The notes beneath the pieces were generated by a model, which saw only the letters and a program-made list of their open reading frames with translations, was not told the DNA's origin and ran no database searches. The translations under genes and the position numbers were made by a program. 34,354 nucleotides of DNA, from positions 1-34,354 of the forward strand of contig JAILEI010000131.1 in assembly GCA_024688225.1 (NCBI GenBank), read 5' to 3'. This document shows positions 5,622 to 33,914 of the stretch, piece by piece. Source of the stretch: Succinivibrionaceae bacterium (lineage in GTDB: Bacteria > Pseudomonadota > Gammaproteobacteria > Enterobacterales > Succinivibrionaceae). Numbering within the stretch: position 1 is the stretch's first letter; the number at the start of each line of letters is the position of its first letter.

Positions 5622-5635
5622 GGAGAGACAGGAAA

Positions 5636-7252: not shown

Positions 7253-7256
7253 CGCC

Positions 7257-8488: not shown

Positions 8489-8497
8489 TCCCCGCCC
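8476..8497. terminator. Hairpin shared by converging gntR-type gene and gnd
   Basis: GGGCGGGGA (8476-8484) pairs with TCCCCGCCC (8489-8497) around a CTGA loop. The stem covers the stop codon of the regulator and lies 6 bases beyond the end of gnd. No T run follows on either strand, so it may be a bidirectional weak terminator or an mRNA 3' stabiliser. Confidence 0.45.
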
Positions 8498-8503
8498 TGG
8501 CCC

Positions 8504-9919: not shown

Positions 9920-10018
9920 GATCAGCTCCTTTTGTGCTTGGGAATGCAATGAGCATATCACAAAGGCCTGGGCCAGAATGCTACACGGGTATCATTTTTA
10001 GGCGCTTGGCAGCAATGG

Positions 10019-11035
10019 CTAGTTGAGGCGGTAGGAACTGGCGCTGCGCCCGGTGGCCCGCTCGCACAGGGAGATGAACTCCCCGGACTGGGGCAGGTCC
10101 TTGGCCAGGCGCGCGAAGGCCGGGCCGAGGCGGTTGATCATCTCGAGGCGCATGGCGTCCGGGAGGGCGGCCTCCATGAGCCCGTAGTGGGTGAGGCGGC
10201 GCAGCGCGTCCTCGTTGGAGCGCCGGCCCTCCTGCCAGCCCAGGGACAGCGCGGTGGCCGCGGCGCGGCGCAGCTTCCTCTCGCCCTCGGGGCCGAGGGA
10301 GTCGAGGAAGCTGCGGGAGGCCACCAGCGGCGCCACCGAGAAGATGTGGCGGGTGTTGTAGGCATAGCGCTGCTCGAGGTAGAGGGTGTTGTAGAGGATG
10401 GTGGGCGGGGTGCTGGCGAGCCCGTCCGCCTCGTGGCCCACCAGGGCCCCCGGGATCTCGGGGATGTCGAAGATCACCGCCTTGAAGCCCATGGCCTTGG
10501 CGAGGGTCTCATAGGTGGAGTTGTTGGGGACCCGCATGCGGAAGTCCTCAAGGTCGTCGGGGCTGTCGAGGCGGCGGTTGGAGGTGATGACGCGAAAGCC
10601 CCGGGGCACCAGCCCAAGCGGCACCAGCCCGGAGCGCTCCTCAAGATCCCCGGCGAGCAGCGCCATGCCCTCATCGCCGAAGACGCGCTGCGCCTCGTCC
10701 CAGGTGGAGAGCATGAAGGGGATGGCGGAGAGCCGGAAGCCCGGGGCGATGAACTCGAGGTGCTCGCTGAGGATGGCGATATCCACCTTGCCATCGCGCA
10801 GCATCTGCACCACCTGCCGCTCGTCGCCATAGCGGTAGCCCTGGAGGTGGTTGACCCCGATCTCCCCGGAGAACTCGCGCTCGAGGGCGCGGATGAGGTG
10901 CCTTGAGACCTTGTGCACCGAGTCGCCGGACACCGCGAGGTCCACGTAGTTGGCGCTGACAAATTCGGCGGACGCGGGCAGCGGCGCGCCCAGGAACAGG
11001 AACGCAAGCAAGGCCGCCAGGAACCTAATCGCCAC
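10019..11035 (-). CDS. Orphan TRAP transporter receptor, DctP family
   Basis: A periplasmic solute receptor for a TRAP carboxylate transporter; members bind dicarboxylates, uronates or other organic acids through an Arg. The conserved segment is RMRVPNNSTYETLAKAMG, with Arg168 the likely carboxylate ligand. The chosen GTG start at 11035 gives a compact signal peptide of about 23 residues ending in ASA and has GGGAGG just upstream (spacing rather short, 3 bases). An ATG at 11080 would add 15 Arg-rich residues, has no clear ribosome-binding site, and overlaps a TAAAAT hexamer that may be the -10. No DctQ or DctM membrane genes are nearby, so it either serves a distant TRAP transporter or acts as a sensor partner. 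Ligand unknown; the uronate neighbourhood makes an aldonate or uronate plausible. Confidence 0.85.
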   Translation of the reverse strand: MAIRFLAALLAFLFLGAPLPASAEFVSANYVDLAVSGDSVHKVSRHLIRALEREFSGEIGVNHLQGYRYGDERQVVQMLRDGKVDIAILSEHLEFIAPGFRLSAIPFMLSTWDEAQRVFGDEGMALLAGDLEERSGLVPLGLVPRGFRVITSNRRLDSPDDLEDFRMRVPNNSTYETLAKAMGFKAVIFDIPEIPGALVGHEADGLASTPPTILYNTLYLEQRYAYNTRHIFSVAPLVASRSFLDSLGPEGERKLRRAAATALSLGWQEGRRSNEDALRRLTHYGLMEAALPDAMRLEMINRLGPAFARLAKDLPQSGEFISLCERATGRSASSYRLN

Positions 11036-11077
11036 TTTCCTCCCCCTGCGCGCTGGGCGCGCCACAAAAAACCTAGT

Positions 11078-11109
11078 CATTTTATCACCGGGCGGGGCAT
11101 TTGATCACC
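11078..11109 (-). promoter_or_regulatory. Two 12-base direct repeats upstream of the DctP gene
   Basis: On the minus strand GGTGATCAAATG (11109-11098) and GGTGATAAAATG (11089-11078) match at 11 of 12 positions and are 20 bases apart start to start, close to two helical turns. The second copy contains TGATAAAAT, which reads as an extended -10. This looks like a tandem operator over the receptor promoter. The core GTGATCAA also occurs upstream of uxuA (4340-4347). Confidence 0.45.
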
Positions 11110-11128
11110 ACCGCCCGGCGCGGGCCGG

Positions 11129-11189
11129 GCGGGCATGGGTCACACTTTTGCCCACCCGCCCCACGGTCCGCGCCCCGTGCCGATATAAT
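11129..11189 (+). promoter_or_regulatory. Promoter of the GGDEF-like pair
   Basis: A perfect -10 TATAAT lies at 11184-11189. The hexamer 17 bases upstream (CCACGG) is not a -35. A CRP-type half TCACA (11140-11144, reading TGTGA on the other strand) is placed so that a full CRP window (11129-11144) would be centred 47.5 bases before the -10, the same distance as at the GH28, uxuA and helicase promoters. The other half is not conserved. The site also lies between this gene and the divergent DctP gene. Confidence 0.5.
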
Positions 11190-11211
11190 GGGGCAAAGAG
11201 GCGATTTTCCC

Positions 11212-12321
11212 ATGGATGAGGAAGCAATCTCCGACATTTTTGTGCTGGGTGAGCTCAGCGCCTTCGCGGCGCTGGTGCTGATCATCCTCCTTGCCTGCGC
11301 GGGCGGGGAGATGCGCGAGCGCGCGCGCACCCTGCGCCGCTGCCTGCTGCTCTCGCTGCTCATGGGCGCGGGCTGCCTTGCCAGTGAGTTCGGGACCCTG
11401 CTGGAGCGCCCGCAGCTGGGCTTTGTGGGACTCACCGCCATGATCAGCCTCGGGGAGCTGTGCGTGGGCCAGATCGCCGCCTCGCTCGCGCAGCGCGCGG
11501 GCCTTACCCGCCTGCTGCAGCCGCGCCTCGCGCTCGCGGTGTGCTTCCAGGCGCTGGTCCTGGGCAACGCCTGGCACGCCCTGCTGTTCGAGGTGGTGCC
11601 TGACGGCCCCCTGGTCCGCGGCCCGCTGTTCTTCCTGGCCCCGGCCATGATCCTCTGCTACGCCGCCTTCTTCGCGGTGCTGACCTTCCTGCCCCACAGC
11701 GGGGAATGCCCCAACCCCGATGAGGAGGCCGTGCTCATCGAGACCGTCTGCCCGCTGCTCATCTGCGCCGCGCTGGTGGCCGAGATGCTCAGCGGCCTGC
11801 CGGTGGCGCTCATCGGCACCGCGCTGGCCTTCGCGGTCTTCTACCTCGCGCTGCAGGAGATCATGATTTTCTTCGACCCGGTGACCTGCCTGCACAACCG
11901 CCGCGCGATGCGCCTCTTCCTGCTGCGCCAGGGCGCCCCCGCGTTCGTCATCCTGGTGCGGGTCAAGGGCCTGCCCGAGGTGTCGCAGAACTTCGGGCGC
12001 ACCGAGTCGCTGTCGGTGGCGCGGCGCATCTCGGCGCTGCTCTTCCCGGACGGCCACCCGCCGCACTGGTTTGTGGTGCGCCTGGGGCGGGGGGAGTTCG
12101 TGATCATCGGCAACCCCGAGGACGATGAGGGGATGGGCCCGGCCACCGGGCTGGTGCGCGCCGCCATCGAGCGGGCCGTCGAGGGCCCGCTCGCCCCCTA
12201 TGAGCTCAGCTTCGGGGTGGGATCCGCGGCGCTGCCCGCCGGGCAGACCCTCGACGGCGCCATCCGCATCATCGATGGCATCTACCTGGTGCGCCTCGGG
12301 CGCCTGGCGGAGGGCGAGTAG
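11212..12321 (+). CDS. Membrane protein with degenerate GGDEF domain (first of pair)
   Basis: A 369-residue protein with about six hydrophobic segments over residues 1-220, followed by a diguanylate-cyclase-like domain. The domain entry motif is recognisable (FDPVTCLHNRRAM, with Asp222 in the place of the metal-binding Asp of D-x-LTGLxNR). The catalytic loop reads GRGEF at 292-296 instead of GGDEF: the second Gly and the central Asp are lost, so cyclase activity is not expected. It may bind GTP or a partner, or act as a sensor. The start at 11212 is chosen for AAGAGG 10 bases upstream and a perfect -10 beyond; the frame is open further upstream but without support. Its TAG stop abuts the ATG of the next gene. 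Confidence 0.75.
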   Translation: MDEEAISDIFVLGELSAFAALVLIILLACAGGEMRERARTLRRCLLLSLLMGAGCLASEFGTLLERPQLGFVGLTAMISLGELCVGQIAASLAQRAGLTRLLQPRLALAVCFQALVLGNAWHALLFEVVPDGPLVRGPLFFLAPAMILCYAAFFAVLTFLPHSGECPNPDEEAVLIETVCPLLICAALVAEMLSGLPVALIGTALAFAVFYLALQEIMIFFDPVTCLHNRRAMRLFLLRQGAPAFVILVRVKGLPEVSQNFGRTESLSVARRISALLFPDGHPPHWFVVRLGRGEFVIIGNPEDDEGMGPATGLVRAAIERAVEGPLAPYELSFGVGSAALPAGQTLDGAIRIIDGIYLVRLGRLAEGE

Positions 12322-13473
12322 ATGGACTGGAGGCTGCTTACCGCCATCCTCGAGTGCTCGTGCCTGGCCATGATCATGGGCCTGTGCCTGCTGCTGCGCC
12401 GCTACCATGACCAGCGCGCCTCAACCTACGTGGTGGTCGGCTACGCGGCGGCGCTGTTCGCGCTCTCCGACACCATGCACCATGCCCTGCTGTTCCTGGC
12501 CGAGGGCCAGGACACCATCCCGGGCTGGCTGGGGGCGCTGATCATGACCTGCTCGGCGCTCTACGACGTGACCCTGCTCAACATCGCCTTCACCGTGGCG
12601 ATCAGCAGCTGGCGCTTCTACTCCCCCATATCCTGGCAGATCCCCGTGCTGCGCGTGGGCTTCTGCGCCCTCTACGCGCTGCTGCAGCTGCTGGTGGCCA
12701 GCACCCCCTTCCATGGGCTGGTGGAGATCATCAACCTCGACGAGGGCTTCAACCCCGGTCCGCTGTTCTTCCTGCTGCCGCTGGGCTTCTTTGCCATGAT
12801 GCTGCTCGCGCTGTGGTTCCCGGTGGTGTCGCTGGGGGACTCGGGGCGCCAGCGGCGGCGCGCCGTGCATGAGAAGATCGTGACCGCGCTGTGCCTCATC
12901 CTGGTGATGCTCGCCGAGCTCATGGACCTCATGATCGACGAGACCCTGGTGCTGCCCATGTGCACGCTGCTCACCCTGATCTCGGCCATCCACTTCCAGC
13001 GCCGGCAGATCTCGCTGGACGGCCTCACCGGCCTGCGCAACCAGGAGAACCTCATCGCCCGCCTCAAGGTGCGCTACCGCATCCCCGGCGCCAACCAGCA
13101 CCTCTTCGTGGCGCTGTTCTCCCTGCCCTGGCTGACCCGGTACACCGAGCAGGCGGGCTACCGCAAGAGCTCGGAGCTCGCCATGGCCTTCGCCGAGATG
13201 ATGCGCTCCTGCACCCGCGAGCTGCGCTCCTGCGCGGTGCGCTACCGTGACGATGAGTTCCTGGTGCTGCTCGACCCGGTCTTCGAGGCCGACGCCGAGG
13301 ACTACGTGGGGCGGGTGGAGATCTCCTTCCTCGACCTCGCGCACCGCCACAACCTCCCCCAGGGCTTCACGCTGCGCACCGATCTCCTCGGCACCGACCG
13401 CAGCATGCAGTTCTCCCTCGACCTGGTGGACGCCATCGAGCACCGCCTCTACCTGCTCAGGGGCGATGAGTAG
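12322..13473 (+). CDS. Membrane protein with degenerate GGDEF domain (second of pair)
   Basis: 383 residues with the same plan as the preceding gene: about six or seven hydrophobic segments over residues 1-220, then a GGDEF-like domain beginning ISLDGLTGLRNQENL (Asp233). The signature loop reads RDDEF at 309-313, so both glycines are replaced while Asp311 and Glu312 remain. The glycines are needed to seat GTP, so activity is doubtful though less clearly lost than in its neighbour. It begins at the base after the upstream stop codon, which implies translational coupling and probably joint function, perhaps a heterodimer. The two proteins are only distantly alike outside the motifs. No EAL or PilZ genes are adjacent. 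Confidence 0.75.
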   Translation: MDWRLLTAILECSCLAMIMGLCLLLRRYHDQRASTYVVVGYAAALFALSDTMHHALLFLAEGQDTIPGWLGALIMTCSALYDVTLLNIAFTVAISSWRFYSPISWQIPVLRVGFCALYALLQLLVASTPFHGLVEIINLDEGFNPGPLFFLLPLGFFAMMLLALWFPVVSLGDSGRQRRRAVHEKIVTALCLILVMLAELMDLMIDETLVLPMCTLLTLISAIHFQRRQISLDGLTGLRNQENLIARLKVRYRIPGANQHLFVALFSLPWLTRYTEQAGYRKSSELAMAFAEMMRSCTRELRSCAVRYRDDEFLVLLDPVFEADAEDYVGRVEISFLDLAHRHNLPQGFTLRTDLLGTDRSMQFSLDLVDAIEHRLYLLRGDE

Positions 13474-22411: not shown

Positions 22412-24382
22412 CTACTCCCTGGCCAGTGCCTCGATGGGGTTGAGCCGCGCCGCCGAGCGCGCCGGCATGAAGCCAAAGGCGATGCCAATCAGCGAGGAGG
22501 TCACCACCGCGGCCACGATTGAGAAAACCGAGAAGGACATGGCGATCCCCGGCGCCAAGTAGCCAAGGGCCTGCCCCATGAGGAATGATAGCACCACTCC
22601 CAGGAATCCGCCCATCAGGCAGACCAGCACCGACTCGATGAGGAACTGCGCCATGATGTCGGCCTGCCGCGCCCCCACCGCCATGCGGATGCCGATCTCG
22701 CGGGTGCGCTCGGTCACCGAGACCAGCATGATGTTCATCACCCCGATGCCGCCCACCAAAAGCGAGATCACCGCGATCGCCGAGATGAGCAGGGTGAAGG
22801 TCTGGGTGGTCTCGTTGATGGAGCGCATGATGGTGTCCGAGGACATCACGAAGAAGTCCACGCGCCCGTGGCGGGTGGTGAGCAGCGCCTTGAGGCTCTT
22901 CTCCGCCACCGCCGCCGAGAACCCGTCCTTGATGCGCAGCACGATCGAGGAGAGGTAGTTCTGGTTCATGAGCCGCGACATCACCGAGGTGTAGGGCAGG
23001 TAGACCATCAGCTGCCCCTCGCGCATGAAGGGCGAGTCGGTCTTCTTGAGCACCCCCACCACGGTCACGGGCAGGGTGTTGAGCAGCAGCTTGCGCCCCA
23101 CCGGGCTGGTGGCGCCAAAGAGCGAGCTCGCGGTGTTGCTGTCGATGACCGCCACCTGCGAGCGCTCGCGCTCCTCGCGCTCGTTGAACAGGCGCCCCGC
23201 CTCGATCTCCATGCCATAGACGCGGAAGTAGTTGGTGGTCACCCCGTAGGCGGTGCCGTCGCTCTCCTTGTTGCCCTGGCGGATCAGCACCGAGCGGGTC
23301 AGGGTCGAGGTCGCCGAGTCCACGAAGGGCTGGCCCTCGAGCACCTGCAGGTCCCTAACCGTGAGGGTGCGGTGCTTCCCCGAGCGCACGTCGCCCATGT
23401 GGGTGCCCGGGTAGACGGTCAGGGTGTTGGTGCCCAGGGCGCTGATGTTGGAGATGATCCGCTCCGAGGCCCCCCGCCCCAGCGCCACCACCGAGACCAC
23501 CGCCATGATGCCGATGATGATGCCGAGCATGGTCAGCAGGGTGCGCAGGCGGTTGGAGCGCATCGCCCGCGAGGCCATCACGAAGGCCTCATAGAACCGG
23601 TCAGCGAGGCTGCGCCAGGTGTGCGCCCAGGAGTTGTTGATCACCGCCTCCGCGCCCCCCGGCGCCGCGGGGGCGGCCTTTGGGGCCTCAGGGTTTTGCT
23701 CGTCGGAGACCACCGTGCCGTCGCGGATGGTGATGATGCGCCGCGCGCAGCGGGCGATGCGCGGGTCGTGGGTGACGATGATGACCGTGTGCCCCTCGGC
23801 GTTGAGCTCGGAGAGGATGCGCATCACCTCCTCGCCGCTCTTGGTGTCGAGGGCGCCGGTGGGCTCGTCGGCGAGGATGATCTGCCCGCCGTTCATCAGC
23901 GCCCGGGCAATGGAGACGCGCTGCTGCTGGCCGCCCGAGAGCTGGCTGGGCCGGTAGCCCTCGCGCTCGGAGAGCCCCAGGCGCCCGAGGAGATCCGAGG
24001 CGCGCGCGGCGCGCCTTTGCGGGCGCACCCCGGCATAGATGGAGGGGACCTGCACGTTCTCGCTGGCGCTCAGGTGCCCGAGCAGGTGGTAGCGCTGGAA
24101 GATGAAGCCAAAGAAGTCGCGGCGCAGCTGCGCGAGCTCGTCGGGGAGCATGGCGCTGGTGTCCTGCCCGCCCACCTCGTAGCTGCCCCCGGTCGGGGCG
24201 TCAAGGCAGCCGATGATGTTCATCAGGGTCGACTTGCCCGAGCCCGAGGGGCCGATGATCGCCACCATCTCGCCGCGGCGGATCTCAAGGTCGATGCCGT
24301 GCAGCACCTCCACCTCGCCATCCCCCGAGGGATAGGAGCGCCGCACCCCGCGCAGGGTGAGGAGGGTCTCCGCCGCCCCCAT
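22412..24382 (-). CDS. macB: MacB, ABC-type efflux ATPase/permease
   Basis: 656 residues. The N-terminal ABC domain has Walker A GPSGSGKST (44-52), the signature LSGGQQQRVSIARAL and Walker B ILADEPTGALD. It is followed by one transmembrane helix, a large periplasmic domain and three C-terminal helices (FtsX-type), the mechanotransmission layout of MacB. Its ATG overlaps the macA stop by one base (TGATG). With MacA and the OM lipoprotein encoded three genes downstream it would form a complete pump. Confidence 0.97.
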   Translation of the reverse strand: MGAAETLLTLRGVRRSYPSGDGEVEVLHGIDLEIRRGEMVAIIGPSGSGKSTLMNIIGCLDAPTGGSYEVGGQDTSAMLPDELAQLRRDFFGFIFQRYHLLGHLSASENVQVPSIYAGVRPQRRAARASDLLGRLGLSEREGYRPSQLSGGQQQRVSIARALMNGGQIILADEPTGALDTKSGEEVMRILSELNAEGHTVIIVTHDPRIARCARRIITIRDGTVVSDEQNPEAPKAAPAAPGGAEAVINNSWAHTWRSLADRFYEAFVMASRAMRSNRLRTLLTMLGIIIGIMAVVSVVALGRGASERIISNISALGTNTLTVYPGTHMGDVRSGKHRTLTVRDLQVLEGQPFVDSATSTLTRSVLIRQGNKESDGTAYGVTTNYFRVYGMEIEAGRLFNEREERERSQVAVIDSNTASSLFGATSPVGRKLLLNTLPVTVVGVLKKTDSPFMREGQLMVYLPYTSVMSRLMNQNYLSSIVLRIKDGFSAAVAEKSLKALLTTRHGRVDFFVMSSDTIMRSINETTQTFTLLISAIAVISLLVGGIGVMNIMLVSVTERTREIGIRMAVGARQADIMAQFLIESVLVCLMGGFLGVVLSFLMGQALGYLAPGIAMSFSVFSIVAAVVTSSLIGIAFGFMPARSAARLNPIEALARE

Positions 24383-25581
24383 CAGAACGGCCCCCGGTGG
24401 CGGCGCTTGTTCTCCTCAAGGGCCTGCGCCTCGGTGCTGCGCACGTCATCCCCGAGCACGATGCGATCCCCCTCCTCAAGCCCTTCCTTAATCTCCACGT
24501 AGCGGTCGTCGCGGATCCCGGCGAGGCACTCGCGGCGGTCCACCGCCCCGCCCTCCCCGAGCACATAGACCGTGACCTTGCCCGCGCCGTCGCTGCGCAG
24601 CGCGGTAAGCGGCACCGCCAGCGCATCCTTGGCGCTCGCGATGTCGATGGTGACGTCGGCGGTCATGTCAATGCGCAGGATCCCCTCGCTGTTGTCCACG
24701 TCGAGGAGGGCGTTGTAGTAGATCGCCGAGGAGGTCGAGGAGGAGCTTGAGGAGCTGCTGCTCGAGGTCTCGTCGGCGCTGCTCGGCGCGAGCTTGATCT
24801 CGCGCAGCGTGGCCGAGAAGCGGCGCTCCGGCAGGCCGAGGATGGTGAAGTAGCAGGGCATGCCCTCGGTGACCTTGACCACGTCCGCCTCGGAGATCTC
24901 GGCCTTGACGGTCATGGTGTCGAGGACCGCCAGGCGCAGGATGGTCGGGGTGGTCTGGTTGGCGTTGACCGTCTGCCCCTCCTCAACCGGGACCCCGTAG
25001 ACCGTGCCGTCCATCGGCGCCACGATCTTGGTGTAGCCGAGGTTGGTCTCGGCGGTCGCGACCTCGATCTCGGCCTGCTCGCACTGCGCCTGAAGGCTAT
25101 CGAGGGCGGCCTTGGCCATCTCGTACTCGGCCTCGGAGGTCTCAAAGTCCTGCTGCGAGGTGGCGCGCAGCGACAGCAGCTTGCGGTCGCGCTCGTAGGT
25201 GGCCTTCTTTTTCTTGAGGTCGGCGCTCTTGGAGTGCATCTCCGCGGCGATGCGCTTGAGCTCCGCGCGCGCCTTGCGGAGGTTGTTCTCCTGCAGGTCG
25301 GGGTCAATCTCGGCGAGCAGGTCGCCCTTCTTGACCCGGTCGCCGGTGCCCACGTGCAGCTTGACGATCTTCCCCGAGACCTGGGCGCCCACGTCCACCT
25401 CCACCCGCCCCTCGAGGGTGCCGGTGGCAAAGACCTGGCTGGTGATGTCCCGCCGCTCCGCGGGCACCGTCATGTAGGTCGGCGCCGGCTCGCGGGGGTA
25501 GAAGTAGTAGCCGCATCCCACGGCGGCGGCCAGCAGCAAGGCGAGCGCGGCCATCCTGGACTTGCGGGGGCGCTGGGACAT
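24382..25581 (-). CDS. macA: MacA, periplasmic adaptor of the MacAB pump
   Basis: A 399-residue membrane-fusion protein: an N-terminal hydrophobic anchor (about 13-30, with a Cys that is a weak lipobox), lipoyl and beta-barrel domains (VDVGAQVSGKI, then GDRVKKGDLLAEIDP), a helical hairpin and a membrane-proximal domain. The start MSQRPRK at 25581 is chosen for GGAGG 8 bases upstream; an ATG 15 bases earlier is less well supported. A run of ten serines, then TSS, occupies residues 273-285, in a loop before AIYYNALLDV. It uses mixed Ser codons, so it is not a simple slippage tract. First gene of the five-gene operon. Confidence 0.93.
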   Translation of the reverse strand: MSQRPRKSRMAALALLLAAAVGCGYYFYPREPAPTYMTVPAERRDITSQVFATGTLEGRVEVDVGAQVSGKIVKLHVGTGDRVKKGDLLAEIDPDLQENNLRKARAELKRIAAEMHSKSADLKKKKATYERDRKLLSLRATSQQDFETSEAEYEMAKAALDSLQAQCEQAEIEVATAETNLGYTKIVAPMDGTVYGVPVEEGQTVNANQTTPTILRLAVLDTMTVKAEISEADVVKVTEGMPCYFTILGLPERRFSATLREIKLAPSSADETSSSSSSSSSSTSSAIYYNALLDVDNSEGILRIDMTADVTIDIASAKDALAVPLTALRSDGAGKVTVYVLGEGGAVDRRECLAGIRDDRYVEIKEGLEEGDRIVLGDDVRSTEAQALEENKRRHRGPF

Positions 25582-25693
25582 GATCTGATCCTCCATGGCT
25601 GTTCCTGCTGGCCATTGTGCCCGGCCGGGAGTTAGCGAAGAATTAGCGGCTTGGTGCCGGGACCGCCATTTTACACCCCGCGCGCCCCTCCCC

Positions 25694-25727
25694 CCCGGCC
25701 CTGCCCCAGGGCGGTGCCGGGTTTTTT
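25694..25727 (+). terminator. Orphan terminator in the macA-rlmI intergenic region
   Basis: CCCGGC (25694-25699) pairs with GCCGGG (25716-25721), with inner GCCC/GGGC pairs and a small internal mismatch; six T follow (25722-25727). It points in the plus direction, but the genes on both sides are transcribed away from it (macA minus, rlmI further downstream). It may end antisense RNA or a small RNA starting within or before 25600-25690. Confidence 0.7.
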
Positions 25728-25779
25728 GCCCCCGCCTTCTGGGCCAAATTCCCCGCCCCCGTGCCAAAGCCCCGCAAAG

Positions 25780-25795
25780 TGTGATATAAATCACA
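25780..25795 (+). promoter_or_regulatory. Perfect CRP-type palindrome upstream of rlmI
   Basis: TGTGATATAAATCACA is a perfect TGTGA-N6-TCACA inverted repeat, 52 bases from its centre to the rlmI ATG and about 207 from the macA start. The core TGATATAAA also reads as an extended -10, so a bound protein could block a promoter there. FNR is less likely since its half-site is TTGAT. The -10 spacing seen at other TGTGA promoters in the window is not met in either direction. Confidence 0.7.
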
Positions 25796-25839
25796 GCATT
25801 GTGCGTCTGTCCCGCCCCGTCCCTTGGAGGTATCGCGCC

Positions 25840-27045
25840 ATGACCTTTTCCTTTCCCTACGCCCGGGTGTTCCTCAATGAGGGGCGCGAGCGCGCCTCGC
25901 TGCGCCACCACCCCTGGGTCTTCTCCCAGGCCATCGCCCGCACCGAGGGCGAGCCGCACAGCGGCGATCCGGTGACCCTGCTCGACGCGGCGGGGAACTT
26001 CCTTGGCTACGGCATCTACAGCGAGAAGTCGCAGATCCGGGTGCGCCTGCTCTCCTTCCGCGAGGAGGAGCGCCTCGAGGACGGGCTCATCGCCTCGCGC
26101 GTGGCCCGGGCGGTGATGGCCCGCGAGCCGCTGCGCGCGCGCGGCAACGACGGCCTGCGCCTCATCGCCTCCGAGGGCGACTTCCTCCCGGGCCTCATCG
26201 TCGACCAGTACAACCAGTACCTGGTGGTCTCCTACTCCTCCCACGCCATGGAGGCCTTCCGCAAGCCCATCACCGCGGCCCTTTCCGAGCTGTTCCCCGA
26301 CTCCCCCATCTATGAGCGCTCGGACGCAAGGTCGCGCCTCAAGGAGGGCCTGCCGGTGCGCAACGGCCCGGTGCGCGGCGATCCCCCGCCCGAGCTCATC
26401 TACGTGCGCGAGAACCAGGAGATCCTGCTGCCCGTGGAGATCCGCGGCGGCCACAAGACCGGCACCTACCTCGACCAGCGCGAGAACCGCCGCCTCGCCT
26501 CCACCCTCGCCCGCGGCGCCAAGGTGCTCAACTGCTTCTCCTACACCGGCGGCTTTGGCCTGTGGTGCCTGCTCGGCGGCGCCCGCATGGTCCACAACGT
26601 CGACATCTCCGGGCCGGTGCTGCAGGTGGCCAAGGCGGCCGTGGCGCACAACCACCTCGACCCCGGCCACTGCCGCTTCATCAAGGACGACGTCTTTGAG
26701 TACCTGCGCACCGCCCGTGAGCAGGGCGAGTCCTACGATCTCGTGATCCTCGACCCGCCCAAGTTCGCCGAGAGCGCCGCCCACCTCAAGAGCGCCTGCC
26801 GCGGCTACCAGGACATCAACCGCCTCGCCCTCTCGCTGGTGCGCCCGGGCGGCACCCTGCTCACCTTCTCCTGCTCCGGGCTCATCAGCCCCGAGCTGTT
26901 CCAGAAAATCGTCGCCGACGCCGCCCTCGAGGCCGGGGTCGACGGCCGCTTCACCCGCGCCCTGCGCCAGGACGAGGACCACCCGGTCGCCCTGCCCTGC
27001 CCCGAGGGACTGTACCTCAAGGGCTTTGAGGTCACCGTGGGCTGA
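25840..27045 (+). CDS. rlmI: 23S rRNA m5C1962 methyltransferase RlmI
   Basis: Methylates C1962 of 23S rRNA using S-adenosylmethionine. 401 residues against 396 in E. coli: an N-terminal PUA domain (about 1-75), an EEHEE-type linker domain and a C-terminal Rossmann methyltransferase. Motif IV is LDPPKF at 304-309, and the catalytic Cys345 lies in TFSCSG, both typical of RlmI. GGAGG lies 9 bases before the ATG. The stop is 23 bases before the pyrophosphatase gene, so they are probably cotranscribed. Confidence 0.95.
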   Translation: MTFSFPYARVFLNEGRERASLRHHPWVFSQAIARTEGEPHSGDPVTLLDAAGNFLGYGIYSEKSQIRVRLLSFREEERLEDGLIASRVARAVMAREPLRARGNDGLRLIASEGDFLPGLIVDQYNQYLVVSYSSHAMEAFRKPITAALSELFPDSPIYERSDARSRLKEGLPVRNGPVRGDPPPELIYVRENQEILLPVEIRGGHKTGTYLDQRENRRLASTLARGAKVLNCFSYTGGFGLWCLLGGARMVHNVDISGPVLQVAKAAVAHNHLDPGHCRFIKDDVFEYLRTAREQGESYDLVILDPPKFAESAAHLKSACRGYQDINRLALSLVRPGGTLLTFSCSGLISPELFQKIVADAALEAGVDGRFTRALRQDEDHPVALPCPEGLYLKGFEVTVG

Positions 27046-27068
27046 GCAAGCAACAGGAGCACCATCAG

Positions 27069-28055
27069 ATGAAAACCAAGCACCTCGCACTGGCGCTGCT
27101 CGCGCTGCCCCTCGCCGCGCTCGCCAGCCCCGCCCTGGTCTTCGGGCACAAGAGCCCGGACACCGACACCATCGCGGGCGCCATCGGTGCCTCGGCCTAC
27201 TACAACGCCCGCGGCCTTGAGACCGTGCCCGCCGCGCAGGGCGCCCCCAACCCCGAGACCCGCTACCTGCTCAGGCGCTTTGGCCTGCCTGACCCCAAGG
27301 TCATCGACAGCGTGGGCCAGGACGGCTTCTACATCGTCGACTTCTCGGACACCGCCCTCGCCCCCCGCGACTTCAGCCCCAAGGGGCTGCGCGGCATCAT
27401 CGACCACCACAAGCTCGGCGACGCCACCTCCGCGGCGCCGATCGAGTGCGTGATCATGCCCTACGGCAGCGCCTGCACCATCATCTATGAGCTGTTCACC
27501 CAGCGCGGCCTTGAGATAAGGAAGGACATCGCCGGCATGCTGCTCGGCGCGGTGCTCTCCGACACCCTCAACCTCACCAGCGAGACCACCGTGGACGCCG
27601 ACCGCGCGGCCGTGGCGGCGCTCGCCAGGATTGCGGGCGTGGAGGATCCCTCCGCCCTCTTCTCCGAGATGTTCCGCGCCAAGGCCAGCCTTGACGACAC
27701 CCCGGCCAACCTCCTGCACCGCGACTACAAGGAGTTTGACATCAACGGCCACCAGGTGGGCATCGGCCAGCTCGACCTCCTCGAGATGAAGGACTTTGGC
27801 GATGATCTCAAGGCCAAGATCACCGCCGAGATGGAGCGCGCCGTAAAGGAGGATGGCCTTGAGGTGGTGATGCTCTCGCTCAACTCCTTCAACGAGAAGC
27901 AGAATGCCCTGCTGCTGCGCGCCCGGGATCCCAGGCTGCGCGCCGCGATCGCCGCCCACTTCAAGGTTCAGGATGACGACAGCCTCACGAGGCTTGAGGG
28001 CCTGGCCTCGCGCAAGAAGCACCTCGTGCCCCCGCTCTACGACCTCATCAAGTAG
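27069..28055 (+). CDS. ppaC: Family II (DHH) inorganic pyrophosphatase with signal peptide
   Basis: Hydrolyses pyrophosphate with Mn2+ or Co2+. The 328-residue protein has the family II plan. The metal site shows HKSPDTD (His27, Asp31, Asp33), Asp91 in IVDFSD (the family usually reads VDHNE) and DHH at 112-114. A further Asp lies in VLSDTLNLTS, and the DHHA2 motif SRKKHLVPPL is at the C-terminus. Before the first strand lies MKTKHLALALLALPLAALA, a convincing signal peptide; family II enzymes normally start within a few residues of that strand and are cytoplasmic. AGGAG is 9 bases upstream of this ATG and no other start lies near the domain, so the extension appears real. Export to the periplasm is therefore predicted. 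Confidence 0.88.
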   Translation: MKTKHLALALLALPLAALASPALVFGHKSPDTDTIAGAIGASAYYNARGLETVPAAQGAPNPETRYLLRRFGLPDPKVIDSVGQDGFYIVDFSDTALAPRDFSPKGLRGIIDHHKLGDATSAAPIECVIMPYGSACTIIYELFTQRGLEIRKDIAGMLLGAVLSDTLNLTSETTVDADRAAVAALARIAGVEDPSALFSEMFRAKASLDDTPANLLHRDYKEFDINGHQVGIGQLDLLEMKDFGDDLKAKITAEMERAVKEDGLEVVMLSLNSFNEKQNALLLRARDPRLRAAIAAHFKVQDDDSLTRLEGLASRKKHLVPPLYDLIK

Positions 28056-28108: not shown

Positions 28109-28240
28109 CCTTATCCGGTTTTTAAATTATCGTTCCGTAGGATGGACCAAGGCGGCGCTAGCATGGGAGTGTGGGCAGGGGCCGCCGGGGCGTCCCCACC
28201 GCCCCCAGCCTAAACTAAACGCAAGCAAAGGAGCACGGAT

Positions 28241-28522
28241 ATGGAAAAACTGGGTTCTTTCCTCCTGGGCACGGTGGTCGGCGCCGCGGCCCTGGGCGCC
28301 ATCGCCTGGAAGCTCGCCGAGGATGACGATGACGGCAGCGTCAGCGACCACGAGCTCGACGGCATCATCAAGGACTGCGACCACCGCGAGCAGCGCCTCT
28401 CGGAGATCGACGCCGAAATGCAGGATCTTGCCAAGCGCAACGAGGAGGCCAAGGATCTCGGGGAGCTCGCGGAGATCTCCCGCAAGCAGGGCAAGCTGCT
28501 CGATGAGGCCACCTCCCTGTAG
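28241..28522 (+). CDS. Small membrane protein with coiled coil, unknown function
   Basis: 93 residues. A single hydrophobic helix (about 5-23, with glycine and alanine small-residue packing, GTVVGAAALGAIAWK) is followed by an acidic stretch EDDDDG and a charged heptad-like region (about 35-88) that should form a coiled coil. This resembles YtxH-like small proteins only in plan. AAGGAG lies 7 bases before the ATG. It has a strong terminator after it and one before it, so it is a single-gene unit. TAAACT at 28211-28216 might be its -10, but the -35 is unclear. No function can be given. Confidence 0.8.
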   Translation: MEKLGSFLLGTVVGAAALGAIAWKLAEDDDDGSVSDHELDGIIKDCDHREQRLSEIDAEMQDLAKRNEEAKDLGELAEISRKQGKLLDEATSL

Positions 28523-28560
28523 GGACGCCGCCAACCTAACACCATGGTGCTGTAGTGGTG

Positions 28561-28598
28561 GGGGGCGGGCCGCCTGGCGGCCCGCCCCCCCCTCTTTT
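28561..28598 (+). terminator. Terminator of the 93-residue protein gene
   Basis: GGGGGCGGGCCGCC (28561-28574) and GGCGGCCCGCCCCC (28576-28589) form an exceptionally stable all-GC stem, followed by CCCTCTTTT. Confidence 0.85.
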
Positions 28599-28615
28599 GC
28601 AAAGGGCCGGGCAGT

Positions 28616-28676
28616 TGTGATCCAATTCATGGATTTACAAGGGGAAAGGGGCAGCGCCACGGCCGGTTGCTATAAT
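28616..28676 (+). promoter_or_regulatory. Promoter of the SF1 helicase: TGTGA box plus extended -10
   Basis: TGTGA (28616-28620), spacer TCCAAT, then TCATG (3 of 5 to TCACA). A perfect TATAAT lies at 28671-28676, preceded by TG at 28668-28669 (extended -10). The distance from TGTGA to -10 is 55 bases, identical to the GH28 and uxuA promoters. The position expected for a -35 reads GGGGCA. Confidence 0.65.
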
Positions 28677-28719
28677 CGGTTGGTTTCCGCCCCATCCCCC
28701 CAACGCAAGGATTCCCACC

Positions 28720-31700
28720 ATGAAATGCCGCTACCTCATCACCAAGGAACTCCAGAAGGACCTCACCCCCCGGCGGATTGACGCCAACGTGAGGAAGGAC
28801 TTCGAGGACTTCTGCAAGGCCACCGAGGAGATGGAATCCAAGCTGACCCACATCTTCAACAACGCCTACTCAAGGCGCTACAACTCCGGGGCGCGGGCCA
28901 TCTGGCTGCGCCAGCAGCGGGGGGAGGCGGTGGTCTATGTGCTCCGGGTCTTCTACCCGCAGCACGACCTCTACAAGGACGGGACATGGGATACCGGGCG
29001 GTGGATGGAAAAGTACTCCTGCTACACCGAGGGCGAGCAGGCGGAGATTGACGCCCTGCTCGATGAGCTCAACCGCCCGGAGGAAGATGAGGCGCGGGTG
29101 CTCCCGGAGCTCAGCCATTGCGAGCGCGCGTACATCGAGGGGGCGCGCAACACCACCTCGCACGCCATCTTCGATGAGGCCATCTACGAGACCGCGGGCT
29201 GGCTCGCCACCGTCAGGGCGCCCGGGTTCATTGAGTTTGACTCCGTGGCCGACCCCCTGCTCGACTACATTTTCGAGAACTGCAACCAGGACCAGTACGG
29301 GCCCTTCAGGGTGCCGCTCGACTTCGACAAGTCCCGCTGCGTGTTCGGGTACCGCGCGCACCGCCAGGGCAAGGACGGGCAGGCCCTCGGCAGCGTCTGG
29401 ATCCTGCGGGGCATCACCAAAAAGGACAGCGGGCAGACGGAGGAGGAGCTGCAAAGGCCCCGTCCCAGCGAATGCCGCCGCGCCTACCCCTACACCATCC
29501 TCGAGAACAAGGATCTGTGGCGGGAGATGGAGACCGATCCCAACAGCAACTTCATCCTCTCCGACGAGGAGGTGGGGGTGGTGGCCCCGGAGCGCGACCA
29601 TGACTACCCGCTGTTCATCAGCGGCCGCGCCGGCAGCGGCAAGTCCACGGTGCTGCAGTACATGTTCGCCGATGAGATCCTGCGCTACCTGAAGAGCCGC
29701 GGGGACGGGACCACCCTGCTCCCCCCCATCTACCTCTCCTACAGCCCCAACCTGGTTGGCAAGGCCCGGGAGCTCTCCCACAGCCTGTTTGAGAAAAACC
29801 ACATCTACAGCGAGGAGCTCGAGCGGCTGCACATCGGCGACATCGGCGACCTCAAGCCCGGCATCGATGACTACTTCATGGTGTTCAAGGAGCTGGCCAC
29901 GCAGATGATCGCCGAGGCGGTGCCACACGCCATCCGCGACCGCTTCAAGCCCAGTGAATACATCACCTACAGCGTGTTCCACCACAAGTGGATGCAGCGC
30001 TTTGGCAAGGAGCACGAGGCGGTCCGTGAGTACGGCCCGGACATCTCCTGGCACGTAATCCGCACCTACATCAAGGGCTGGGACAGCGAGTCGCTCCTCA
30101 CCCCGGGCCAGTACCGCGGCATCGGCCGCAGCAACCAGGACGTCTCGCCCGAAACCTACGACCTCGTCTACAGCCGGGTCTGGTGCGACTGGTACTCCAA
30201 GCTTGAGGGCGCCTGGGACGACCAGGACCTGGTCCGCTACTGCCTGCGCCCCGACGACGGGGCGGCCCCCTCCTGCGTCCACGAGCGCTTCTCCGCGGTG
30301 TTCTGCGATGAGGCGCAGGACTTCACCCGCACTGAGGTGGACTTCATCCTCCGCATCTCCTCCTTCTCCAACCGGCGCTACCAGATGCCCCGCGACCTCT
30401 CACGCCTGCCCTTCGTCTTCGCCGGCGATGAGTTCCAGACCCTCAACCCCACCGGGTTCTCCTGGAACTCGCTGCGCTCCTACCTCACCAAGCGCCTGGC
30501 CGAGATCAGCGGGTTTGACGAGAACGACATTTCCCAGGCCGACCCCGTGCCCCTGGTGCGCAACTACCGCTCCACCGACCACATCGTGCGCCTCGGGAAC
30601 CGCATCCAGCTGCTGCGCGAGGCCCGCTTCCTCCAGCCCTCTGATCCCCAGGAGCCCCACTTCTCCACCGAGGGCGGGTCCATATTCTGCCTCGACCCGC
30701 ATGACAAGTCGGTCTGGGACCGCCTGAAGAAGGCCAAGGCCACCCTCATCGTGCCAGCCCAGGATGGCCAGGACATCAAGGACTACATCCGCTCCCTGGG
30801 CATCCCTGATGGCTGCGTGACCTTCAATGAGGATGGCGCCGCGCAGTTCCTCACCATCCTCAACCCCTCCCAGGCCAAGGGCCTGGAGTTTGACAACCTG
30901 GCCGTGCTCGGGTTCCGCTGCGACGGCCCCATGGAGGGACTGAGCCTCGCCAGCCTCCTCGAGTGGATGGAAAGCGGCAGCCACCACCCCGACACCATGG
31001 ACGAGAACCACGAGATTGGCCTGCGCTACCAAATCAACAACGCCTATGTGGCGGTGACCCGCGCCAAGAAGAAGCTGTTCATCCTCGATGACTGGAACGA
31101 AAAGTCCTTCTGGGCCTTCGCCTGTGCCTTCGCGGAAACCTCGAAGAGCCTGTGGGACCGGGTGGAGCGCCTTGAGGATCTCATGCACGGCCGGCTGAAC
31201 GAAAACCGCAAGCGGGTGTGGGAGAGCACCCCCCTGGGACTGATCCGCAGGGGCGAGGTTGACGACATCAGTGGCGAAAACCTCGAGGACTCCAAGGAAA
31301 ACAGCCAGCAGCTCGAGCAGCGCGCCCAGTTCCGCAGGGACTCCGGGCTCTTTTACCAGGCCGCGGCCCGCTACAAGGAGCAGGGCGATGACAAGAAGCA
31401 CTTTGAGTGCAAGGCCTACGCGGCCCTCTATGACCCGGTGCCCAACCACACCGCCGCCGCCGAGCTGTTCAAGCGGGCCGGGCTCAATGACAAGGCGGAG
31501 GAAGCATACTGGCACGCCGCGGCAATTGCCGGGAACTGGGAAAGGATGGAGCCGCTGCTCACCAAGATTGCCAGCCTGACCAACCGCCGCAACAGCATCA
31601 CCTTCAAGGCCTGCCAGCTGGTGACCGGTGACCTCATCGAGCCCTGGGCGGTGTTCGACCTCATGGACCAGTTCTGCCTCGAGTACTCGGCAGACGGGAA

Positions 31701-33267
31701 GAAACTGCCCCAGGGGCTCACCGCCTGGCAGCGCCTCATGGACCAGGCCCTGTCGCGCGCGGAGCGCCAGCAGACCGATCCCCGCACCCTCGAGAACCTG
31801 CTGGAGCTGCGGCCGAGGCTGCGCGACCTGGGCATCATCATCGACCCGTTGCCCCTCATCCGCATTGCCGGCCGCCTCGGATCCCACGACGCGGTGCTCG
31901 AGCTGTGCGAGGGCCTCGACTCCCGCGCCCGCCCGCGCGAGTACTACCTCGCCATGTTCAGCAAGAGCGAGTACCCAGAGCGGATCAACTACCTGCGGGG
32001 CACCGAGGACTCGCAGTGGGCCAGCAAGGTCGTTGAGGAGTTCCTGAGGCACCCAGGGGTGCCGCTGCCCGAGCGCGAGAAGATGCTGGTGGCAAGGTGC
32101 GCCCTGGACATCGCCCGCTACGACGTGGCCACCCCGCTCTTCCCCTGGCTGCTCTCAAGGTGCCAGGGCATGGGCGAGGCCCAGGAGGCCGTGGAGAAGG
32201 CCGCCGACCGGATCAACTTCAACGCCAAGGCCATGAACGCGCTCATCCTGGCGCGCTACAACTCCCTGGCGGGCTTCGCGCGCACCGACAATGGCAGCGA
32301 TCCGCTGGGCGTGAGGGAACTGATGGAGATCGTCGCCACGGTGACCTCGCTCCAGGGCGAGTCCGCCATCTCCAGCCTCCGGGACATGCTGCGCACCCCC
32401 CGCCGGCTGCGGTCCTACCTCGACGATCGCTTCGGGCGCTTTGCCCGCCAGCCCTTTGTGCCCATCCTGCTGTTGCAGCTGGGAGTGCTGATGGAGCGCA
32501 TCGGCAACCACAACTTCGCCGCCCGTTACTACGACTGGGCCTGGGCCCAGACCGATGATGCCCATGCCAAGCGGCAGATCGAGCTGCGCCTGCTGGCCTG
32601 CAACCGCCGCTACTCGGAAATCAACAGCGATCCAGTGCTGCTGCAGGAGGTCCTGCAACTGCAGGCCAGGCTGCACGTGGACGCGGAGACCAAGCTGCCC
32701 ACCTCCCCAGATCCCGCCACCTTCTGTGACTGGGAGGCCATGTACCGGGAGGCGGTGCGCCTAGGGTCGGAGCGGCAGCGCCGCAATGAGCAGCCGCGCC
32801 CTGCCGAGCCGCGGCGGAACGACCGGGGCAGGCACGACCGGCCGGTCGCCAAGAACCCCGTTGCCGAGGCCATCCAGGTCAGCTCCGGGCCCAAGGCCTT
32901 CTCGACCGCCCCGGCCCTGAGCCAGCACCATGGGGAGATTAAGGAATCACCTGCGGCCAGCAGCGCCCCCCAGGCACCGTCCAAGCCCAGCGGGACCTGG
33001 TCCAAGCTGCTCAGGATCGGCAACTTCAAGCTGCGCTACCGCACCTCCGGCCGTGAGCTGGACATCTGCTACGATGATGATGAAAGCTACCTGCACACCA
33101 GCTGCAGGAATGGCAAGATCGAGGACGGCGAGGACTTTGCCCTCGCCCCTGACGGGACGCTGGTGCGCGCGGACGGGACCAGCACCCCGCTGGTGATCAG
33201 GCAGGAAGGCGACCACGTGGTGATCACCGAGCCTGGCAGCGGCGAGCGCCACGTCCTCGGCGACTAG
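28720..33267 (+). CDS. Giant SF1 helicase with helical-repeat and C-terminal domains
   Basis: A 1515-residue protein with a complete UvrD/Rep-type SF1 motor: Walker A GRAGSGKST (302-310), Walker B DEAQD (530-534), motif III GDEFQ (569-573), motif IV VRNYRST (613-619), motif V QAKGLEFD (718-725), and motif VI VAVTRAKKK (777-785). The N-terminal 300 residues include ARAIWL...GEAVVYVLRVFYPQHDLYKD. This follows the strand pattern of RelE/ParE-type domains found fused to SF1 helicases; the assignment is tentative. Residues about 860-1340 are all-helical with TPR-like pairs (AARYKEQGDDKKHFECKAYA, AAELFKRAGLNDKAEEAYWH). About 1348-1425 is a charged, Pro/Ser-rich linker, and 1426-1515 a beta-rich domain I do not recognise. 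No nuclease motif is evident. AAGGA lies 8 bases before the ATG. Fourteen bases separate it from the downstream hydrolase. The overall plan recalls TRANK1-like helicases; an RNA-surveillance or anti-phage role is speculation. Confidence 0.88.
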   Translation: MKCRYLITKELQKDLTPRRIDANVRKDFEDFCKATEEMESKLTHIFNNAYSRRYNSGARAIWLRQQRGEAVVYVLRVFYPQHDLYKDGTWDTGRWMEKYSCYTEGEQAEIDALLDELNRPEEDEARVLPELSHCERAYIEGARNTTSHAIFDEAIYETAGWLATVRAPGFIEFDSVADPLLDYIFENCNQDQYGPFRVPLDFDKSRCVFGYRAHRQGKDGQALGSVWILRGITKKDSGQTEEELQRPRPSECRRAYPYTILENKDLWREMETDPNSNFILSDEEVGVVAPERDHDYPLFISGRAGSGKSTVLQYMFADEILRYLKSRGDGTTLLPPIYLSYSPNLVGKARELSHSLFEKNHIYSEELERLHIGDIGDLKPGIDDYFMVFKELATQMIAEAVPHAIRDRFKPSEYITYSVFHHKWMQRFGKEHEAVREYGPDISWHVIRTYIKGWDSESLLTPGQYRGIGRSNQDVSPETYDLVYSRVWCDWYSKLEGAWDDQDLVRYCLRPDDGAAPSCVHERFSAVFCDEAQDFTRTEVDFILRISSFSNRRYQMPRDLSRLPFVFAGDEFQTLNPTGFSWNSLRSYLTKRLAEISGFDENDISQADPVPLVRNYRSTDHIVRLGNRIQLLREARFLQPSDPQEPHFSTEGGSIFCLDPHDKSVWDRLKKAKATLIVPAQDGQDIKDYIRSLGIPDGCVTFNEDGAAQFLTILNPSQAKGLEFDNLAVLGFRCDGPMEGLSLASLLEWMESGSHHPDTMDENHEIGLRYQINNAYVAVTRAKKKLFILDDWNEKSFWAFACAFAETSKSLWDRVERLEDLMHGRLNENRKRVWESTPLGLIRRGEVDDISGENLEDSKENSQQLEQRAQFRRDSGLFYQAAARYKEQGDDKKHFECKAYAALYDPVPNHTAAAELFKRAGLNDKAEEAYWHAAAIAGNWERMEPLLTKIASLTNRRNSITFKACQLVTGDLIEPWAVFDLMDQFCLEYSADGKKLPQGLTAWQRLMDQALSRAERQQTDPRTLENLLELRPRLRDLGIIIDPLPLIRIAGRLGSHDAVLELCEGLDSRARPREYYLAMFSKSEYPERINYLRGTEDSQWASKVVEEFLRHPGVPLPEREKMLVARCALDIARYDVATPLFPWLLSRCQGMGEAQEAVEKAADRINFNAKAMNALILARYNSLAGFARTDNGSDPLGVRELMEIVATVTSLQGESAISSLRDMLRTPRRLRSYLDDRFGRFARQPFVPILLLQLGVLMERIGNHNFAARYYDWAWAQTDDAHAKRQIELRLLACNRRYSEINSDPVLLQEVLQLQARLHVDAETKLPTSPDPATFCDWEAMYREAVRLGSERQRRNEQPRPAEPRRNDRGRHDRPVAKNPVAEAIQVSSGPKAFSTAPALSQHHGEIKESPAASSAPQAPSKPSGTWSKLLRIGNFKLRYRTSGRELDICYDDDESYLHTSCRNGKIEDGEDFALAPDGTLVRADGTSTPLVIRQEGDHVVITEPGSGERHVLGD

Positions 33268-33281
33268 CAAGGAGAGCAGAC

Positions 33282-33914
33282 ATGAAGCACAGAATCGCGG
33301 TGGTGCCGGTCACCCCCTACATCCAGAACTGCCGCCTCATCCTCGACGAGGGGGCGAAGGCGGCCACGGTGCTCGACCCAGGCGGCAAGGCCGAGCTCAT
33401 CTGCGGCATGCTCAAGGGCTCGGGCTACCGCCTCGAGGCCATCCTGCTCACCCATGGGCACCTGGACCACATCGCGGACACCGGCAAGCTGCACCGCCTG
33501 ATGGGCGGACGGATCATCGGCCCCGCCGAGGGCGACCGCTTCCTCATCGAGGGCCTTGAGGGCCAGTCCTCAATGCTGGGGCTGCCGGGCGGCGAGCCCT
33601 TCACCCCCGAGTACGTCGCGGACGGTGAGGCCATCGAGCCCATGCCCGGCCTTAGGCTCAAGGTGCTCGCCACCCCCGGCCACACCCCGGGCTCGGTGTG
33701 CTTCCTCAGCGAGGAGGAGGGCTACCTGCTCTCCGGGGACACCCTCTTCCAGGGCTCAGTGGGCCGCACCGACTTCCCGGGCGGCAGCACCGAGGATCTC
33801 CTCACCTCCATCAAGGAGAAGATCCTCACCCTCGATGACCAGGTGCGGGTGATGCCCGGCCACGGCCTCGACACCACCGTGGGGGCCGAGCGCGAGGGCA
33901 ACCCCTTCCTCTGA
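33282..33914 (+). CDS. ycbL: Metallo-beta-lactamase-fold hydrolase, YcbL/glyoxalase II type
   Basis: 210 residues; family members hydrolyse S-D-lactoylglutathione or related thioesters. Metal motifs: THGHLDH (His58, His60, Asp62, His63), the His of ATPGHTPGS, Asp in SGDTLF and the His of MPGHG. The segments PVTPYIQNC, FQGSVGRTDFPGG and the end EREGNPFL match the E. coli/Salmonella YcbL pattern, and the length is that of YcbL rather than the longer GloB with its C-terminal domain. AAGGAG lies 7 bases upstream. It is only 14 bases after the helicase stop, so the two genes are probably cotranscribed, though a functional link is not evident. Confidence 0.9.
   Translation: MKHRIAVVPVTPYIQNCRLILDEGAKAATVLDPGGKAELICGMLKGSGYRLEAILLTHGHLDHIADTGKLHRLMGGRIIGPAEGDRFLIEGLEGQSSMLGLPGGEPFTPEYVADGEAIEPMPGLRLKVLATPGHTPGSVCFLSEEEGYLLSGDTLFQGSVGRTDFPGGSTEDLLTSIKEKILTLDDQVRVMPGHGLDTTVGAEREGNPFL

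What the first reader, a model, noticed from the sequence alone, without database searches (positions are those of the whole stretch)
28720..33267. Giant multi-domain SF1 helicase, a candidate for an undescribed defence or RNA-surveillance system
The 1515-residue protein has all SF1 motor motifs. To these it adds a possible RelE/ParE-like N-terminus, some 480 residues of helical repeats, a disordered linker and an unrecognised C-terminal beta domain. Large single-protein helicases of this kind are often immune or surveillance factors. It is flanked by housekeeping genes rather than phage or toxin genes, and shares its promoter layout with sugar genes, so it could equally be a regulated cellular factor. 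The motor is seen in sequence; the N-terminal fold and the role are inference.
Basis: partly seen in the sequence, partly recalled or inferred. Interest (0 to 1): 0.75.

Follow-up and report, generated by a model that had tools for sequence, protein, structure and literature searches.

The report
Rare multi-domain bacterial helicase, probably immune
A gut-type bacterium carries a rare 1515-residue motor protein that joins a DNA/RNA helicase to a probable RNA-cutting-toxin-like front end, a protein-binding repeat coil and an unknown tail domain; its scattered distribution and one relative inside an anti-virus gene cluster suggest an immunity factor, but no function is proven.

Summary
The gene is real (28720-33267, +, 1515 aa). 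Full-length relatives of the same architecture occur in a second Succinivibrionaceae genus (34% identity), another family of the same order, another class of the phylum and one IMG/VR contig. All six SF1A (UvrD-like) motor motifs are intact. Residues 858-1134 form a TPR solenoid; 1358-1425 are disordered; 1426-1515 are a modest-confidence beta domain. The N-terminus is probably RelE/ParE-like: supported by weak profile scores and by ~900-1050 aa cousins in five phyla whose N-terminal domains resemble YoeB/HigB/ParE toxins; structure prediction did not confirm it. It is not a core gene: 3 of 57 family genomes, no shared neighbours. In the window it sits between ordinary genes, but one relative lies in an operon of D12 methyltransferase, HerA, NurA, UvrD, PD-(D/E)XK nuclease and type III methyltransferase; another shares a contig with AbiEi/AbiEii; a third abuts prophage genes. 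Best reading: an accessory anti-mobile-element factor, helicase-gated, with a RelE-like effector or ribosome-binding module (confidence about 0.5). No library searched has a model for the full architecture. A new variant of a known kind, untested.

The parts
28720..33267 (+). giant SF1A helicase gene, 1515 aa (P0001)
   Evidence: ORF and translation; full-length homologues
28720..28989 (+). residues 1-90, probable RelE/ParE-like domain
   Evidence: cousin-profile score 9.7 bits, above 2000 of 2000 shuffles; cousins hit ParE_like, YoeB, HigB weakly; not confirmed by structure model
29095..29475 (+). residues 126-252, alpha/beta region of unknown fold between N-domain and motor, absent from most short cousins
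   Evidence: alignment, model secondary structure, Walker A positions of cousins, no Pfam hit
29623..29649 (+). helicase motif I / Walker A GRAGSGKST (302-310)
   Evidence: K308 invariant
30052..30078 (+). family motif HVIRTYIKG (445-453)
30214..30237 (+). family motif WDDQDLVR (499-506)
30304..30324 (+). helicase motif II CDEAQDF (529-535)
30418..30459 (+). helicase motif III FAGDEFQTLNPTGF (567-580)
30562..30573 (+). helicase motif IV NYRS (615-618)
30874..30891 (+). helicase motif V AKGLEF (719-724)
31045..31065 (+). helicase motif VI YVAVTRA (776-782)
31291..32121 (+). TPR-type helical solenoid, residues 858-1134
   Evidence: AlphaFold2 pLDDT mostly 70-93; Foldseek hits are TPR proteins, E 2.7e-5 to 1e-3
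32122..32790 (+). second helical region, residues 1135-1357 (part of it low confidence)
32791..32994 (+). disordered linker, residues 1358-1425
   Evidence: pLDDT below 50 over nearly all of the stretch
32995..33264 (+). C-terminal beta domain, residues 1426-1515
   Evidence: eight strands, pLDDT about 50-72; conserved in L006 and as a C-terminal piece in G016; no Pfam hit
28560..28590 (+). perfect 14-bp GC hairpin followed by T-rich tail: probable terminator separating the gene from upstream genes
28668..28676 (+). extended -10-like TGCTATAAT, candidate promoter of the gene
   Evidence: read in sequence; not found by the consensus scan
33282..33914 (+). metallo-beta-lactamase-fold hydrolase, 14 nt downstream, possibly co-transcribed
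   Evidence: its relatives in the family are not beside a helicase

Best explanation
An accessory immunity factor against mobile genetic elements, working as one large protein. SHOWN: intact UvrD-type motor motifs, TPR solenoid (model), disordered linker and C-terminal beta domain (model), patchy distribution, variable neighbourhoods, one full-length relative inside a defence operon. PROBABLE: the N-terminus has the RelE/ParE fold. INFERRED: the TPR solenoid and the C-terminal domain recognise an invader-linked protein or nucleic-acid state; ATP-driven translocation on single-stranded DNA or RNA is then coupled to the RelE-like domain, which either cleaves mRNA on ribosomes or docks the machine on them, shutting down translation in the infected cell or clearing foreign nucleic acid.
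For: Present in only 3 of 57 family genomes and 3 of 14 genera, and in few of the several hundred genomes sampled in order, class and phylum, although the flanking gene families are in 52 of 57. The G092 relative lies in a same-strand gene run, several members overlapping by 4-8 bp: D12 methyltransferase, HerA, NurA, UvrD, PD-(D/E)XK nuclease, this helicase, type III Mod. The G026 relative shares a 23-kb contig with AbiEi/AbiEii, about 12 kb away. The L091 relative abuts a transposase and prophage terminase genes. Short cousins lie on plasmids and genomic islands: on a plasmid with cas1/cas2 and VapC, near DUF262/DUF3696, near GmrSD, and in E. coli in 111 of 5426 genomes, in island regions, one with CbtA/CbeA, antirestriction and CDI genes. 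RelE-like folds fused to SF1 helicases have a published precedent in CoCoNuT CnuH (PMC11090510).
Against: In the window itself the neighbours are ordinary genes, and the G016 and G758 relatives are not in evident defence islands (G758 has a diguanylate cyclase beside it and a PIN-domain gene about 4 kb away). The HerA-NurA-methyltransferase core occurs without the giant helicase, so it is not an obligate part. PADLOC gives only weak GajB matches confined to motor motifs. The RelE fold is not confirmed by structure. No phage or plasmid record carries a full-length copy. No activity data. G092 is a 670-contig assembly, so its contig could be misassigned.
Confidence: 0.5

Rival explanations
1. 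A cellular RNA-surveillance or ribosome-rescue factor: the RelE-like domain binds stalled ribosomes and the motor strips or unwinds mRNA, with no role against invaders.
For: RelE-family toxins act in the ribosomal A site (background cited in PMC11090510); the TPR solenoid's top structural neighbour is a subunit of the Ski RNA-decay complex, though many unrelated TPR proteins score alike; ordinary neighbours in the window and in G016 and G758.
Against: Not found in 54 of 57 family genomes; the motor is UvrD-type rather than UPF1-type by profile; one relative in a defence operon.
Confidence: 0.17
2. An accessory DNA-repair or recombination helicase, the RelE-like domain being a dead relic used for protein contacts.
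For: UvrD/PcrA-type motor; the G092 relative sits with HerA, NurA and a second UvrD with a PD-(D/E)XK nuclease, all DNA-processing proteins.
Against: Rare and scattered, unlike repair helicases; the methyltransferases in the G092 operon point to restriction rather than repair; large TPR and disordered parts are unusual for repair motors.
Confidence: 0.18
3. Selfish cargo of mobile elements: a maintenance or inter-element competition protein with a toxin-like domain, benefiting plasmids and islands rather than the host.
For: Cousins lie on plasmids beside ParA genes and on E. coli islands; one relative lies at a prophage/transposase boundary.
Against: No antitoxin partner gene was recognised beside any full-length copy; the window copy is on a chromosome-like contig between ordinary genes.
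Confidence: 0.1

Closest known systems
UvrD/Rep/PcrA SF1A helicases
   Same: All six motor motifs with catalytic residues; best Pfam and NCBIfam matches are UvrD_C and PcrA
   Different: All scores are below curated cut-offs; only about 100 residues separate motifs IV and V, too few for a 2B domain by my knowledge of UvrD; extra N-terminal, TPR and C-terminal parts
CoCoNuT CnuH helicases (PMC11090510)
   Same: SF1 helicase in one chain with an N-terminal RelE/Colicin D-like domain, predicted to act in RNA-targeting immunity
   Different: CnuH is UPF1-like with OB/stalk domains and a McrBC-type partner operon; this one is UvrD-like with a TPR solenoid and has no such partners
Gabija GajB
   Same: UvrD-type helicase in anti-phage defence; PADLOC's best, weak match
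   Different: GajB models are mostly about 500-600 aa and GajB is paired with GajA; no GajA-like gene beside this one, and similarity is confined to motor motifs
RelE/ParE toxin superfamily (YoeB, HigB)
   Same: N-terminal domain of cousins matches these families weakly; the window N-terminus fits the cousins' profile
   Different: Fused to a helicase, no antitoxin partner; the histidine of the cousins' 'NHAY' motif is kept in the window protein (PQHDLY) but not in its nearest full-length relatives
[quoted passage not shown]
   Same: Single very large protein joining an RNase-type toxin domain to an SF1 helicase, proposed to act without modification subunits against invaders
   Different: Different RNase fold, and carries peptidase, DNase and wHTH domains not seen here

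Membership tests
SF1A (UvrD/Rep) helicases | Motifs I-VI with Walker A Lys, Walker B Asp-Glu, motif III Gln, motif IV and VI Arg | tested here: met
   Motifs located; K308, D530, E531, Q573, R617, R781 invariant in five proteins
SF1A (UvrD/Rep) helicases | Score above curated family cut-off | tested here: not met
   UvrD_C 21.9 against 25.6; UvrD-helicase 16.1 against 23 bits; a relative, L108, does pass UvrD_C at 33.1 bits
RelE/ParE superfamily | Sequence-profile match of the N-terminal domain | tested here: inconclusive
   No direct Pfam match; indirect through cousins: 9.7 bits, 0 of 2000 shuffles as high; hhalign of the clade gives low probability
RelE/ParE superfamily | RelE fold in a structure model | tested here: inconclusive
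   pLDDT 65.6 from 3 sequences; no Foldseek match below 0.001
RelE/ParE superfamily | Ribosome-dependent mRNA cleavage or gyrase inhibition | not testable with these tools
   needs biochemistry
TPR proteins | Superhelix of antiparallel helix pairs | tested here: met
   858-1134 helical hairpins, mostly pLDDT 70-93; Foldseek top hits are TPR proteins with probability mostly above 0.9; sequence alone gives no Pfam TPR hit
Gabija | GajA (OLD-type nuclease) gene adjacent to the helicase | tested here: not met
   Neighbours are a pyrophosphatase and a metallo-beta-lactamase-fold hydrolase; none seen in relatives' loci
CoCoNuT (CnuH) | UPF1-like SF1 motor and CnuB/CnuC (McrBC) partners | tested here: not met
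   UvrD-type matches; no McrBC gene recognised beside any full-length copy
HerA-NurA-methyltransferase defence operon | Fixed association with HerA, NurA and methyltransferase genes | tested here: not met
   True for 1 of 5 full-length copies; the operon core lacks the helicase elsewhere
Eukaryotic TRANK1-type UvrD/TPR/ankyrin proteins | Homology to TRANK1 | not tested
   Recalled lead only; no eukaryotic sequence collection at hand and no paper found

The most novel reading that the evidence does not exclude
A widespread, unnamed class of single-protein immune helicases in which a RelE-fold toxin is built into a UvrD-type motor with TPR or ankyrin sensors: the motor's engagement with invader nucleic acid licenses mRNA cleavage, a toxin needing no antitoxin. 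The window protein is a giant branch of a group seen in Pseudomonadota, Cyanobacteriota, Bacillota, Fusobacteriota and Deinococcota.
Probability: 0.27. Interest if true: 0.75.

Novelty: new variant of a known kind. Interest (0 to 1): 0.5.

Why it matters
If the reading holds, it links the RelE toxin fold to UvrD-type helicases in one chain, a second and independent case beside the UPF1-like CnuH of CoCoNuTs, and suggests that helicase-gated ribosome-acting toxins are a recurrent immune design. The E. coli cousins, in about 2% of complete genomes, make it testable in laboratory strains.

Tried and rejected
Viral scans with three alignments and two motif sub-alignments gave one full-length relative only; the other hits are phage helicases of about 490 aa without the extra domains. 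Conserved synteny with pyrophosphatase or hydrolase: rejected, they are unlinked in relatives. The 28127-28660 and 28323-28781 ORFs were set aside as overlapping the likelier 93-aa ORF 28241-28522, which has GC3 0.88. Spurious haemagglutinin hits of the N-terminal profile were discarded. Foldseek hits of the N-terminal model (PAS/LOV, epimerase) were discarded as non-significant. Rfam: nothing. Giant helicase as a core part of HerA-NurA systems: rejected. Gabija and CoCoNuT membership: rejected. Literature searches found no description of a RelE-UvrD fusion, but the library holds only open-licence papers. Shigella virulence-plasmid hits of the short cousin were returned by the search and not pursued; an E. 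coli copy was used instead.

Full report
WHAT IS THERE. The window is contig C162 of a 208-contig, 2.05-Mb genome. Its family has 57 held genomes; the public record of the nearest full-length homologue is titled Succinivibrionaceae bacterium UBA3769. The ORF at 28720-33267 encodes 1515 residues. Its codon-position GC (GC3 0.91) is like the neighbours', so there is no compositional sign of recent import. A 14-bp perfect GC hairpin with a T-rich tail at 28560-28590 separates it from the genes upstream; a TGCTATAAT element at 28668-28676 and AAGGA 8 nt before the ATG are read directly in the sequence. The next gene begins 14 nt after its stop.

HOMOLOGUES. Full-length relatives: L006/G026 (Succinivibrionaceae, 34% identity), L026/L109 from G092 (another family of the order), L108 from G758 (another class), and L091 in an IMG/VR contig. 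A C-terminal piece at a contig end occurs in G016. Within the family 3 of 57 genomes and 3 of 14 genera have it; samples of 395 genomes of the order, 274 of the class and 398 of the phylum added only single full-length cases. By contrast the flanking pyrophosphatase and hydrolase families are found in 52 of 57.

DOMAINS. The motor is SF1A: motifs I-VI at 302-310, 529-535, 567-580, 615-618, 719-724 and 776-782, catalytic residues invariant in five proteins. It is divergent: Pfam UvrD scores fall below the curated cut-offs and phmmer finds no PDB chain. Identity between the two family members falls from about 50% in the motor to 20-25% in the N-terminus, repeats and tail. AlphaFold2 from three sequences shows a helical solenoid at 858-1134, mostly pLDDT 70-93, a less certain helical part to 1357, a disordered linker and an eight-stranded C-terminal domain at modest confidence; Foldseek assigns the solenoid to TPR proteins. 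The N-terminal model is poor (pLDDT 65.6) and matches nothing. The RelE idea rests on cousins: proteins of about 900-1050 residues from cyanobacterial, Paraclostridium, Cetobacterium, Deinococcus and E. coli plasmids and from Pseudomonadota genomes have, before the same kind of motor, a domain of about 85-105 residues. Of ten scanned, individual members score weakly against ParE_like (1.6e-5), YoeB (1e-3) and HigB (2.3e-3), and their profile finds YoeB chains weakly in the PDB. A profile of ten cousin domains aligns to residues 6-84 of the window protein at 9.7 bits; none of 2000 shuffles reaches this, and five real segments score higher, which I take from their labels and scores to be the cousins' own domains. 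The other giant relatives score lower and profile-profile comparison is not significant, so I call the fold probable, not shown.

CONTEXT. In G092 the helicase is the sixth gene of a same-strand run: D12 methyltransferase, HerA (DUF87), NurA, UvrD helicase, PD-(D/E)XK nuclease, giant helicase, type III methyltransferase, several with overlapping ends. In G026 an AbiEi/AbiEii pair lies about 12 kb away on the same 23-kb contig and a sub-threshold zeta-toxin-like kinase about 8 kb away. L091 is followed by a transposase and prophage terminase, ParB/methyltransferase and HNH genes (these identities are my reading of the translations). G758 and G016 lie among ordinary genes. The methyltransferase-HerA-NurA core occurs in Halorarius and Deferribacter plasmids without the helicase, so the association is optional. 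Short cousins are mobile: plasmids with ParA, one about 8 kb from cas1/cas2 and near VapC, one near DUF262/DUF3696, one near GmrSD, and in E. coli 111 of 5426 genomes in island regions, one with toxin-antitoxin, antirestriction and CDI genes. These associations were read locus by locus; no enrichment statistic was computed.

MECHANISM. The economical reading is a conditional effector: TPR and tail domains sense, the motor transduces, and a RelE-like domain acts at the ribosome. Sensing, coupling and cleavage are inference. Published analogues exist for the design: CoCoNuT CnuH, a UPF1-like SF1 helicase with a RelE/Colicin D-like domain whose activity is likewise unproven (PMC11090510), and giant HEPN/SF-I helicase fusions proposed to act alone (PMC3710099). 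A repair or RNA-surveillance role is not excluded.

VERDICT. Observation confirmed, with the N-terminal fold only probable; interpretation partly supported. It is a rare architecture, undescribed in what I could search, built from known parts: a new variant of a known kind, interest 0.5.

Noticed in passing
27069-28055: The manganese-dependent inorganic pyrophosphatase begins with a signal-peptide-like stretch (MKTKHLALALLALPLAALA-SPALVFGHKSPDTD), whereas the ordinary form starts almost directly at the GHKNPDTD motif; the genome has a second copy on C38, and G070 also has an extended hydrophobic N-terminus. It suggests a secreted paralogue.
   Followed up: partly
28241-28522: A 93-aa ORF with an N-terminal hydrophobic segment and a charged helical tail, GC3 0.88, lies just upstream of the helicase; no Pfam match. 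An unrelated-looking small membrane protein also lies beside the G026 helicase (L006:5819-6292).
   Followed up: partly
24382-27090 (-): The 902-aa ORF annotated by its HlyD domain matches only at residues 555-770; its first half has no Pfam match and is probably an over-extended start or an unrecognised domain.
   Followed up: no
L109 (G092:C226) 1-13266: An operon of D12 methyltransferase, HerA, NurA, UvrD, PD-(D/E)XK, giant helicase and type III Mod; the methyltransferase-HerA-NurA core recurs in archaeal and bacterial plasmids. It may be a defence system worth its own study.
   Followed up: partly
L007:9515-12403, L008:9530-12442, L131:8068-11217, L132:8488-11349, L133: A wider group of RelE-like + UvrD + TPR or ankyrin proteins on plasmids and islands of at least five phyla; in E. 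coli in 111 of 5426 complete genomes, including strain EC958.
   Followed up: partly
L126 (G004:C46): A shorter RelE-like/UvrD cousin exists in another Succinivibrionaceae genome, so the family holds both branches.
   Followed up: no
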